Below the pieces are notes generated by a model that had not been told where the DNA came from, ran no database searches, and saw nothing but the letters and a program-made list of their open reading frames with translations. Of a stretch of DNA of 27,152 nt, positions 135 to 16,826 are shown piece after piece. The stretch's first letter is position 1, and the number at the start of each line of letters is the position of its first letter. Position numbers and translations under genes: made by a program. The stretch comes from a virus, in the IMG/VR virus record IMGVR_UViG_3300046468_001313, positions 1 through 27,152 of that record; one strand, given 5' to 3'.

Positions 135-209
135 TGGTACCCTGTAGGAGAATCGAACTCCTGTTGCATGGATGAAAACCATGTGTCCTAACCACTAGAC
201 GAACAGGGC
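135..209 (-). tRNA. tRNA-Glu (UUC)
   Basis: The minus strand folds as a full cloverleaf. The acceptor stem GCCCTGT pairs with ACAGGGT through a G-U first pair. The anticodon stem CATGG/CCATG closes the loop TTTTCAT, giving anticodon TTC. The T-loop TTCGATT is standard and the CCA end is encoded. It lies between the structured stretch at 219-429 and the partial gene at the window start. Confidence 0.95.
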
Positions 210-218
210 ATAAAATTT

Positions 219-297
219 GGCGGGATGGTTCACACTTTACACTCACGTCGTGTAATAAATTGTGGACTGGTGTTGCTTCGTGAACCTGTCCCTGCCC
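219..297. ncRNA. Structured non-coding domain A (candidate RNA, strand uncertain)
   Basis: A long irregular helix can be drawn: GGC (219-221) with GCC (294-296), GGGA (222-225) with TCCC (289-292), and GGTTCAC (227-233) with GTGAACC (280-286). Inside it TTACAC (237-242) pairs with GTGTAA (250-255) around a seven-base loop. No convincing reading frame occupies the stretch. It lies about 10 bases from tRNA-Glu. The pairing is seen directly; that it is a functional RNA is inferred. I do not recognise a known family (not tmRNA, RNase P or SRP RNA by motif). Confidence 0.45.
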
Positions 298-330
298 GAG
301 GTTATTAACCCCCTATTGATAAATAGGTAT

Positions 331-429
331 GAGGAGCGGTACACTTTGGGAATTTACCATGGGGAACAGTAGCAACTACACTCACCTTTTTACCCAAACC
401 CAGTTTACGAAATACCACACGGGCTCCTC
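331..429. ncRNA. Structured non-coding domain B (candidate RNA, strand uncertain)
   Basis: The two ends close as a perfect 7-bp stem, GAGGAGC (331-337) with GCTCCTC (423-429). Further pairs nest inside: GGTA (338-341) with TACC (413-416), TTTGGG (345-350) with CCCAAA (393-398), and a small hairpin GTAG-CAA-CTAC (369-379). Between domains A and B are two more hairpins, GGTTA-T-TAACC (300-310) and CCTATT-GATA-AATAGG (312-327). On the plus strand GATAAATA-GGTAT (318-330) ends exactly one base before the closing stem, where a late promoter would start transcription. Flanking genes are on the minus strand, so the strand is open. Confidence 0.45.
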
Positions 430-14271: not shown

Positions 14272-15795
14272 ATGGCGGCATATATTGTAGCACTTAACAG
14301 CGGAACCCATGCAGATGCAACGGCGGCACAGAATGCCATCACAGGTGCGGGGGCAACAATTACGGAAACGTACAGTTTTAACTTAACATATAAAATAGAT
14401 TGTACTGCAGAACAACTTGCCGCAATAAGTGGCGTATTGCATAGTTCTTTAGACGATGCGACAGAAGATTTAGCATCACAATACTCAACAGATCATTTAA
14501 AATTCCTTTGTAATGACGTAACTAATAGTTTAGCAACGGCATATGATCCTCTTAAAACAGGTACAGATAGCCATGTTTATTTACTAGACACTGGTATTAA
14601 TGCAAGTCATACAGAATTCGGCAGTTCTACTATAAACAACTTACATAGTTTATATACAGTAGACGGCAATCCAGATTACGCAGATTCAACTGGTCACGGT
14701 ACTGCAATGGCAAGTTTGATTAATGGAGACAATATTGGTGTTTCACCAAATGCTACATTACATAACGTAAAAGTTATGAATGCATCGACTACATCCTTAA
14801 CAGTAGGTAACATGGTTGGTGCTCTAAACGAAGTATTAGTACACCATCAAGCAAACACTCCAAGTAAAGTTAAAGCAGTTTGTATCCCATGGATCACTGC
14901 TAAAAATAATTTAATTGATGCTAAACTAGAAGAATTAGAATCACATAACTTAATGGTTGTATGTTCAGCAGGTAACAATGCCGCTGATGCAGACAATTAC
15001 TCTCCAGCAGGTTTAGACCAAGTTATGACTGTAGGCTCACATAATGCAAGTTATGTAGTTGGTGGTTTTGGTGCTAATGCAACTTGGGAAGGTGGCGACG
15101 CTGGATCTAACTTAGGGGAAGAGGTTGATATTTATGCATTAGGTTCTAATGTAAGTATTGCTGATCACAGTAATACATCAAACTACGGCTCGGCATACGG
15201 AACAAGTGGCTCTACAGCCATAGTTGCAGGATTATCTGCACAATATGTAGAATCACATCCTAGTGCAACTGCAACACAAATTAAATCATTCATGGTAGCA
15301 GAAGGAGGAGTACGTGGTAGAGGAGCAAATATAACTTTTGATTCCGCACTTGTAACTTCAACTGGTGCTAACGTGTCATTACTAAAAAAATCTATAGCAC
15401 TTAGTCCTCAAACTAACGATGTTAATTTAGCATCTTATCCTTCAGGTATTATACTTACAGTTGCTAACGGGCAAACTGGAACAGTAAACGTTGGACTTAA
15501 CTCAGAGGCTTCTAATGTTAGTGTATTAGCATTTAGTCCTGTACCACCATTTGCAACCTTTAATACAGGTACTGGTGTTTGTGCTGTAGACACAACAAGT
15601 AATATGACAGGCGTAAATGTTCCTGGTAAGTACCACTTTGCTGTAAGAGGAGAAATAGGCGGTGTTACTAAAGTAGAAGAATTCACAATCGGCGTATATA
15701 CTACAAGTGAAGAAGAACTAGATGCGGCTAATGAATTTTACTATGATGGTTCAAGTTACGACCAAGTTGTAAACTTTAACTCTACTAAAGAGTAA
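14272..15795 (+). CDS. Subtilisin-like serine protease (S8), probable virion protein
   Basis: The 507-aa protein starts with an I9-like inhibitor/prodomain (AAYIVALNSGTHADATAA to about residue 65). The subtilase core follows with Asp106 in VYLLDTGIN, His142 in STGHGTAMASLI, the oxyanion Asn in CSAGNNAADADNYSP (about 231-245) and Ser312 in YGTSGSTAIVAG. GTSGSTA replaces the common GTSMA. After about residue 360 comes a beta-rich Ig-like tail. There is no signal peptide. The late promoter and lack of secretion signal suggest a capsid- or tail-associated protease, or one maturing a phage product; both are inference. It is plus-strand, unlike nearly all neighbours. Confidence 0.88.
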   Translation: MAAYIVALNSGTHADATAAQNAITGAGATITETYSFNLTYKIDCTAEQLAAISGVLHSSLDDATEDLASQYSTDHLKFLCNDVTNSLATAYDPLKTGTDSHVYLLDTGINASHTEFGSSTINNLHSLYTVDGNPDYADSTGHGTAMASLINGDNIGVSPNATLHNVKVMNASTTSLTVGNMVGALNEVLVHHQANTPSKVKAVCIPWITAKNNLIDAKLEELESHNLMVVCSAGNNAADADNYSPAGLDQVMTVGSHNASYVVGGFGANATWEGGDAGSNLGEEVDIYALGSNVSIADHSNTSNYGSAYGTSGSTAIVAGLSAQYVESHPSATATQIKSFMVAEGGVRGRGANITFDSALVTSTGANVSLLKKSIALSPQTNDVNLASYPSGIILTVANGQTGTVNVGLNSEASNVSVLAFSPVPPFATFNTGTGVCAVDTTSNMTGVNVPGKYHFAVRGEIGGVTKVEEFTIGVYTTSEEELDAANEFYYDGSSYDQVVNFNSTKE

Positions 15796-15826
15796 TCGTT
15801 CTTTACAAACAAATCTTATAAGATCT

Positions 15827-15839
15827 ATTAAATAGAGAT
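15827..15839 (+). promoter_or_regulatory. Late-promoter-like motif abutting the ATG, plus strand
   Basis: ATTAAATA-GAGAT-ATG on the plus strand, in the short gap after the subtilase gene. TAAATAGAGATATG is identical to the start of the oxygenase fusion gene (8766-8779, minus strand). Confidence 0.45.
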
Positions 15840-16826
15840 ATGGAAAATATCTTTATAGATCTTACATCTAAAAATAATCAATATATCTGCATTGAGTCAC
15901 AAGGTTCTTGGTTATTTCATAGGTTCGGTAAAAGACAAATAGACAACAAAGAATTAAATTTTGCTGTCCTAAAGAAGTACCTTAAAAAACAATCCCCAAA
16001 GCAAATAACTCTTTATAGTATTTTAGGTGATCCAATGGAATACACTAAAATATTAGATTTATTACACTTTTGTAGGAAATCAGACATAGTTGTAAATATT
16101 AATACTAATGGTTTCAGTAAAAAGATAGAAAAAACTTTAGCACATAATATAGAGTTCTGCTTTAAGATATATGGATACAAGGATACGTTAGATATTATCA
16201 TACCTGATGTAGATAAAAATTTATATAAAAATCTTGATCTTGACTTTAAATGCAAACCAAGAATACAATACATGTTGTACCAACACAATTTACATGATGT
16301 TATAAATGTAATAGACCTATGTGAAAAGAAAGGCTTTGCATTAGAATTACATCCAGGAGTATGTGTATACAACGACCTTAATCATATTATAACTCAAGAA
16401 GGTGAATGGTTATATGACATTAAAGGAATAAACGAACAAGACTTTACTTGCTTATATACATCTTATACTGACTTTACTGAACTAAAAGAAATATTTAAAA
16501 AGTATAAAAAGGATAATTTAAATCTTATTCAATCTAATGAGGGATACCATTTATTAAAAAATTATATTAAAGATACAGGTTTAAGTATAAATGAAGTATC
16601 ACTGCCAAATGTTAATTGTACTGAAGAATATAATTATCAGGATTGTATATCATACAAAGGTCATTTATTTAACAGTATAGAAAAAATGACAATAGTATCT
16701 AATTCTTATGTACCAGATTGGTTACCTGATAAGTTTGATACTCTTAATCCATATCAACGTAATATATTTAATGTTCTATGCGAGTTTGCAAATAGTGATA
16801 AAAAGACTATAGAGTCTTTGATATAG
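15840..16826 (+). CDS. Radical-SAM-like barrel lacking the cysteine motif (pseudo-rSAM)
   Basis: The 328-aa protein has strands and turns typical of radical SAM barrels: ITLYSILGDPMEYTKILDLL (GDP at 63-65) and VVNINTNGFSKK (TNG at 89-91), followed by alternating strands and helices. The Cys-x3-Cys-x2-Cys motif before the first conserved turn is missing; only one Cys stands there, in ICIESQGSWLFHRFG. If the fold call is right, it cannot bind the usual 4Fe-4S/SAM cluster and may act as a partner or substrate-binding subunit of the true radical SAM enzyme at 16807-17820, to which it is convergent. Fold inference is moderate; no enzyme activity is claimed. Confidence 0.55.
   Translation: MENIFIDLTSKNNQYICIESQGSWLFHRFGKRQIDNKELNFAVLKKYLKKQSPKQITLYSILGDPMEYTKILDLLHFCRKSDIVVNINTNGFSKKIEKTLAHNIEFCFKIYGYKDTLDIIIPDVDKNLYKNLDLDFKCKPRIQYMLYQHNLHDVINVIDLCEKKGFALELHPGVCVYNDLNHIITQEGEWLYDIKGINEQDFTCLYTSYTDFTELKEIFKKYKKDNLNLIQSNEGYHLLKNYIKDTGLSINEVSLPNVNCTEEYNYQDCISYKGHLFNSIEKMTIVSNSYVPDWLPDKFDTLNPYQRNIFNVLCEFANSDKKTIESLI
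16802..16819. terminator. Hairpin terminator between convergent genes
   Basis: AAAGACT-ATAG-AGTCTTT is a perfect 7-bp stem. On the minus strand it is followed by TTTTT, fitting termination of the radical SAM gene. It lies in the overlap of the two convergent coding ends, so both stop codons are in or next to the hairpin. Confidence 0.6.

What the first reader, a model, noticed from the sequence alone, without database searches (positions are those of the whole stretch)
219..429. Possible undescribed structured RNA beside tRNA-Glu
Two nested helical domains and two linker hairpins fill a gap with no gene. Domain A pairs GGTTCAC/GTGAACC; domain B closes with GAGGAGC/GCTCCTC. The density of perfect inverted repeats is far above the flanking AT-rich sequence. 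On the plus strand a GATAAATA-GGTAT motif ends exactly where domain B begins, which would place a late transcript start at the first base of the closing stem. I recognise no known family. ACACTCAC occurs in both domains (239-246, 378-385).
Basis: partly seen in the sequence, partly recalled or inferred. Interest (0 to 1): 0.85.

Follow-up and report, generated by a model that had tools for sequence, protein, structure and literature searches.

The report
Two new phage RNA elements beside tRNA-Glu
Next to a glutamate tRNA gene in this virus sit two separate, previously uncatalogued folded RNA elements that recur, with matching base-pair changes, in about ninety other environmental phage sequences, so they are real RNAs whose job (probably controlling transcription into the gene behind them) is still unknown.

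Summary
The structured RNA is real, but it lies on the minus strand, reading towards tRNA-Glu. It is not one nested RNA: it is two independent families in tandem.

Element B (window 429-331 -) recurs in about 50 IMG/VR contigs, with an invariant core. All eight P1 pairs show changes on both sides (97.9% of cells paired; covariation 0.597 against 0.171 shuffled). Element A (317-219 -) recurs in about 47 contigs (0.358 against 0.117). G-U to A-C counts of 30:3 and 37:1 fix the strand.

Neither element matches any of 4,227 Rfam families. BLAST found neither among 50,697 sequenced phages, and a pattern scan of 84,980 prokaryote species genomes found no B.

The elements occur as B-A, B-C-A, B alone or A alone, directly upstream of tRNA-Glu(UUC) or of small ORFs. 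Seven of 35 distinct B elements sit at the start of a near-perfect sigma-70 promoter transcript (background 0.24%). A ends in a GC-rich closing stem plus U-tract.

I favour cis-acting leaders that act on the transcribing RNA polymerase (attenuation or put-like antitermination); this is inferred (about 0.35). A trans-acting ncRNA released from the tRNA precursor is the main rival.

The parts
331..429 (-). Element B: closing helix P1 (423-429 with 331-337), P2 GGUA 416-413 with UACC 341-338, P3 GGG 401-399 with CCC 350-348 capped by a variable hairpin; invariant core GGUAUUUCGUAAA...GGG / CCC...GUGUAC
   Evidence: Model R1 hit 329-430 - at 89.3 bits, E 1.4e-21; 32 distinct homologues; P1 8/8 pairs with changes on both sides; P3 GGG/CCC becomes AGG/CCU in L117/L160
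219..317 (-). Element A: AAUAGGGG hairpin (GGGnn...nnCUC), then closing stem GGG..GGGACAGG / CCAUCCC.CC, variable helix UUCAC/GUGAA, internal helix AGUC/GAC
   Evidence: Model R3 hit 217-321 - at 109.5 bits, E 1.1e-19 (the window is also in the seed); 24 distinct homologues, 8 pairs with changes on both sides
212..215 (-). Short U-tract directly after the closing stem of A (AAAUUUUAU, then tRNA-Glu)
   Evidence: UUUU in the first 12 nt after A in 65% of distinct A elements against 8.5% after random CC dinucleotides in the same contigs
312..327 (-).
   Evidence: Present only in window, L002, L003, L010, L012, L014; absent in other B and A loci
135..209 (-). tRNA-Glu (UUC), 9 nt downstream of A
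   Evidence: ARAGORN; Rfam RF00005 61.6 bits
432..680 (-). 82-aa ORF directly upstream of B; homologous ORFs precede B in L002, L003, L010, L012, L014, L019
686..713 (-). Perfect sigma-70 promoter-like site TTGACA-16-TATAAT, expected to drive ORF82-B-A-tRNA-Glu
   Evidence: 12 of 12 matches; consensus match only

Best explanation
Shown: on the minus strand two independent structured RNA families, B then A, form the untranslated stretch between an 82-aa ORF and tRNA-Glu. Both are maintained by compensatory changes across many phage contigs. Inferred: they are cis-acting leader or intercistronic elements that act on the transcribing RNA polymerase. The nascent RNA folds into the conserved core as it leaves the polymerase, and that core decides whether transcription continues into the gene just behind it (tRNA-Glu here, small ORFs elsewhere). 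It could do so by binding the polymerase itself (like HK022 put RNA) or a ligand or protein, with the closing stem plus U-tract of A, or a separate terminator, as the gate. Which of these signals operates is not known.
For: B starts at the likely first transcribed base: 7 of 35 distinct B elements have an 11-12/12 sigma-70 promoter whose -10 box ends 6-10 nt before P1, background 0.24%. Elsewhere B or A follows a stop codon by a few nt. All are co-directional with the next gene. A fills the whole stop-codon-to-Shine-Dalgarno gap in L120, L121, L122, L129, L135, L142, L153. A ends in a GC-rich closing stem followed by a U-tract (65% against 8.5%). L028 has an intrinsic-terminator-like hairpin between B/C and tRNA-Glu, and the same sequence stands in its relative L022. 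P1 of B is followed by UAUUUUUU in L024/L040. Wherever B or A directly precedes a tRNA, it is tRNA-Glu(UUC). HK022 putL is a 73-nt RNA at the very start of an early transcript that acts on RNA polymerase without a dedicated protein (PMC9378689).
Against: In L057/L059 (after B) and L145 (after A) a fresh promoter-like sequence stands between the element and the next gene, so the element cannot gate that gene alone. U-tracts are short (3-6), and the small-ORF group of B has none. Downstream genes are unrelated, which is unusual for a riboswitch. One B per contig would also suit a trans-acting RNA. No transcript data.
Confidence: 0.35

Rival explanations
1. Trans-acting ncRNA: B, B-A or B-C-A is a stable small RNA. 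It starts at a host-type promoter, or is released by cleavage from an ORF or tRNA-Glu precursor, and acts on a host or phage target.
For: One B per contig, even in a 340-kb contig. Own sigma-70 promoter at P1 in several loci. Unrelated neighbour genes. Clusters with other RNA genes. A ends like an sRNA (stem plus U-tract). In L057/L059 and L145 the next gene has its own promoter-like site.
Against: Always co-directional with, and within a few nt of, the next gene or tRNA. The specific, long-lived link to tRNA-Glu suggests a cis relation. A fills the stop-to-SD gap inside operons.
Confidence: 0.27
2. Transcript stability or processing element: the folded leader protects the 5' end or directs host RNase cleavage so that tRNA-Glu or the next mRNA is released and stable.
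For: 5'-terminal helix at the transcription start in several loci; intercistronic position elsewhere.
Against: A simple helix would do; about 30 invariant, largely unpaired positions need another reason. tRNAs are matured by RNase P without such leaders.
Confidence: 0.18
3. New self-cleaving ribozyme (B in particular): variable open P1, variable capped hairpin, invariant internal loops.
For: Core anatomy; the minimal form is only 58 nt (L060).
Against: No Rfam ribozyme match. One topology only, no circular permutations seen. P1 starting at the transcription start leaves little to cut off.
Confidence: 0.08
4. Metabolite- or tRNA-sensing riboswitch of the usual kind (for example T-box-like, with the GAR triplet and UGGU facing tRNA-Glu).
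For: Leader position; CGARUGGUA in most B elements; tRNA-Glu downstream.
Against: The triplet is GUG in the window's own group, which does precede tRNA-Glu. Triplet and UGGU are adjacent, so one tRNA could not be read at both ends. No T-box Rfam hit. Downstream genes do not share a pathway.
Confidence: 0.12

Closest known systems
HK022 put RNA (putL/putR), RNA-only antitermination element
   Same: Phage RNA of about 70 nt at the very start of a transcript from a sigma-70 promoter, or further inside it; no dedicated protein known
   Different: put is two stem-loops in lambdoid phages (PMC9378689). B is one closed helix with internal loops and a capped P3. No sequence similarity was tested or claimed.
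wcaG and manA RNA motifs (marine and cyanophage leader RNAs, Rfam)
   Same: Structured RNAs in 5' UTRs of marine phages, mostly known from metagenomes; in L017, A lies in front of an NAD-epimerase-like gene
   Different: No match to these or any Rfam model even at E<=10; different core sequences; also precede tRNA-Glu
Phage tRNA-operon RNAs of unknown function (T4 RNA C and RNA D)
   Same: Stable-RNA-like units among phage tRNA genes (from general knowledge)
   Different: Not compared by sequence here; B and A also occur away from tRNAs
Intrinsic terminator
   Same: A: GC-rich closing stem followed by a short U-tract
   Different: About 100 nt with an invariant internal core; sits in front of genes, not at operon ends (except L145)

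Membership tests
Any Rfam 15 family | Match to a covariance model | tested here: not met
   Window and three relatives at E<=1-5, L017 at E<=10: only tRNAs and one 8.6-bit chance hit
tmRNA | tRNA-like ends and tag reading frame | tested here: not met
   ARAGORN finds no tmRNA in the window or relatives; no RF00023 match
Protein-coding gene | Conserved open reading frame | tested here: not met
   B core lengths fall in all three classes mod 3; no frame is open in all B or all A elements
put-type RNA antiterminator | Located just downstream of an early promoter | tested here: met
   For 7 of 35 distinct B elements; the others lie inside operons, as putR lies 270 nt downstream of its start
put-type RNA antiterminator | Two-stem-loop fold | tested here: not met
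   B folds as one closed helix with P2/P3
put-type RNA antiterminator | Suppresses termination by binding RNA polymerase beta' zinc-binding domain | not testable with these tools
   Needs in-vitro transcription
T-box riboswitch | Specifier codon matching the regulated tRNA, separate UGGN bulge | tested here: not met
   GAR in most B elements but GUG in the window group; UGGU directly adjacent
Intrinsic terminator (element A) | GC-rich stem followed by U-run | tested here: inconclusive
   UUUU in 65% of A flanks against 8.5% background, but tracts are short; the terminator scan finds none in the window
Self-cleaving ribozyme | Site-specific cleavage | not testable with these tools
   No Rfam ribozyme match; cleavage assay needed

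The most novel reading that the evidence does not exclude
B and A (and a third module, C) are new classes of regulatory RNA that phages plug in front of tRNA-Glu and small genes to control host RNA polymerase without a protein: a modular RNA-only antitermination or attenuation toolkit spread over unrelated phages, including jumbo phages.
Probability: 0.25. Interest if true: 0.88.

Novelty: new variant of a known kind. Interest (0 to 1): 0.72.

Why it matters
Two RNA families with strong covariation and an almost invariant core were found in roughly ninety uncultivated phage contigs, yet they are in neither Rfam nor, by BLAST, in any of 50,697 sequenced phages. A conserved core of this kind usually means catalysis, ligand binding or binding to a large cellular machine. 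If they act on RNA polymerase they would widen the single well-studied example of RNA-only antitermination (HK022 put). Their steady link to tRNA-Glu raises a directly testable question: why would a phage control one tRNA? Covariance models for both families now exist and can be run on any virome.

Tried and rejected
Plus-strand RNA from a late promoter: rejected by wobble asymmetry and by absence of the motif from most homologues. Divergent tmRNA: no hit. Conserved ORF: rejected. T-box reading of CGARUGGU: rejected because the window's own group has GUG and the two sites touch. Vibrio phage phi 3 match: an AT-rich tandem repeat, not B. Prokaryote genome pattern hits: all 10 lack the GGTA core before TTTCG, so chance. 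Weak second model hits in L060, G012, G013: the one read (L060) has no core. Pelagibacter phages HTVC008M and Mosig and phage C48C1, which carry relatives of a protein downstream of B: no B. An alternative core fold (CGAR/UUUCG hairpin whose UGGUAU loop pairs with GUGUACY as a pseudoknot) remains possible; covariation cannot decide because the 3' strand never varies and five sequences break one pair. Folding-energy z-scores and inverted-repeat density did not help.

Full report
Setting. The window is an IMG/VR virus record of 27,152 bases. Most genes read on the minus strand. It carries a DNA ligase and both ribonucleotide reductase subunits and five tRNAs. The finding lies between an 82-aa ORF (680-432 -) and tRNA-Glu(UUC) (209-135 -), with a perfect sigma-70-type site at 713-686 - upstream.

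Checking the observation. The claim of unusual inverted-repeat density is not supported (2 against a mean of 1.9), and folding energy is unremarkable on either strand. Rfam finds only tRNAs. From the single sequence alone the case would be weak.

Homologues. Relatives of the upstream protein and a pattern from the closing stem gave loci in which the whole 211 bp is 83-94% identical, better kept than expected for a spacer. A pattern from the inner part of the 99-nt domain, GTGGTATTTCGTAAANTGG, then hit 34 contigs. In every one the 3' half of the motif (CCC...GTGTAC), which was not part of the pattern, is present and is enclosed by a different but complementary helix. Wider gapped patterns and a covariance-model search of the domain-A loci added more: about 50 contigs in all.

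Element B. In 32 distinct sequences all eight P1 pairs change on both sides, 97.9% of cells are paired, and the covariation score is 0.597 against 0.171 in shuffles and 0.09-0.16 in slid controls. The seed set was chosen by core sequence, not by P1, so P1 covariation is independent of the search. P3 (GGG/CCC) is invariant in the seed but becomes AGG/CCU in L117/L160. The variable cap of P3 runs from 5 to about 80 nt; the smallest complete element is 58 nt (L060). G-U outnumbers A-C 30 to 3 over P1 plus pair 15-101, which sets the sense strand: minus in the window.

Element A. Domain A alone was found in L017, so it is a separate family. A wider scan yielded 24 distinct sequences in about 47 contigs. 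Eight pairs change on both sides; covariation is 0.358 against 0.117 shuffled and at most 0.12 slid; G-U to A-C is 37 to 1. The alignment was hand-mapped to the structure, which favours it somewhat; the size of the difference from the slid controls is the safer figure.

Where they occur. Order is always in the sense of the next gene: promoter-B-A-tRNA-Glu (L023, L033, L165, L169), promoter-B-C-A-tRNA-Glu (L117, L160), ORF-B-A-tRNA-Glu (window, L002, L003, L010, L012, L014), B-tRNA-Glu (L019, L025, L029, L030, L035, L056, L060, L061, L076), B-C-terminator-tRNA-Glu (L022, L028), B before small membrane-protein and cell-wall-hydrolase-like genes (L020 group), and A between a stop codon and the next Shine-Dalgarno (L120, L121, L122, L129, L130, L135, L142, L153). 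Sources. Wherever one of them directly precedes a tRNA, it is tRNA-Glu, although several contigs carry other tRNAs as well. Each contig searched carries one B. A protein downstream of B in the L020 group is related to proteins of Pelagibacter phages HTVC008M and Mosig, which suggests SAR11-type hosts for that group; hosts of the others are not known.

Transcription. For 7 of 35 distinct B elements an 11-12/12 sigma-70 site ends 6-10 nt before P1, against 0.24% of random positions. The seven include related pairs (L117/L160 and possibly others), so they are fewer than seven independent events; further loci (L049, L056, L165) look the same but were missed or excluded by the script's rules. A is followed by UUUU in 65% against 8.5%.

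Absence elsewhere. BLAST of B and A against 50,697 phage genomes found nothing credible. Paper searches found no description, but only open-licence papers are held.

Mechanism. Shown: sequence, structure, strand, position, recurrence. Inferred: function. I put cis-control of transcription elongation first (0.35), because the elements sit at transcript starts or fill intercistronic gaps in the sense of the next gene, A ends like a terminator, and a true terminator-like hairpin follows B/C in L022/L028. A trans-acting RNA (0.27) is close behind, because of the single copy, unrelated neighbours and the loci with a new promoter-like site after the element. Stability or processing element, riboswitch and ribozyme follow.

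Novelty. New RNA families by every library available here; as a kind, they join the known class of phage leader or small RNAs found by covariation, hence 'new variant of a known kind'. A categorical claim would need a mechanism.

Noticed in passing
L022/L028 between B and tRNA-Glu; L117 13220-13318; L160; possibly L025, L035, L076: A third recurrent module (C): in L022/L025/L028 it contains an H-type-pseudoknot-like AGTCAAC.GCACTTGGACT...AGTGCAT.AGAGTAG; shorter GATCAA...GATC.G.GTAG forms lie before B or A in L035/L076/L117/L160.
   Followed up: partly
window 713-680 -: The perfect sigma-70 site ends 6 nt before the ATG of the 82-aa ORF, so its mRNA may be leaderless.
   Followed up: no
L028 7533-7512 -: Intrinsic-terminator-like hairpin ACCCCCAG...CTGGGGGT TATTTTT directly in front of tRNA-Glu.
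   Followed up: partly
L017 10659-10800: Element A alone in front of an NAD-dependent-epimerase-like ORF (MKIFITGADGFIGSHL...).
   Followed up: no
L059 (339,794-base contig) 5015-4940 -: A jumbo-phage-sized contig carries a single B with its own promoter, followed at once by a second promoter-like site and a SprT-like metalloprotease ORF; L019 has a similar protease ORF after its tRNAs.
   Followed up: no
window 14272-16826 +: The only long plus-strand gene pair (507 and 328 aa); the first has no PHROG match, the second a weak radical-SAM-like match.
   Followed up: no
L098 2717-3055 (Pelagibacter phage Mosig): Annotated phage-encoded tmRNA (SsrA) next to late-transcription genes.
   Followed up: no
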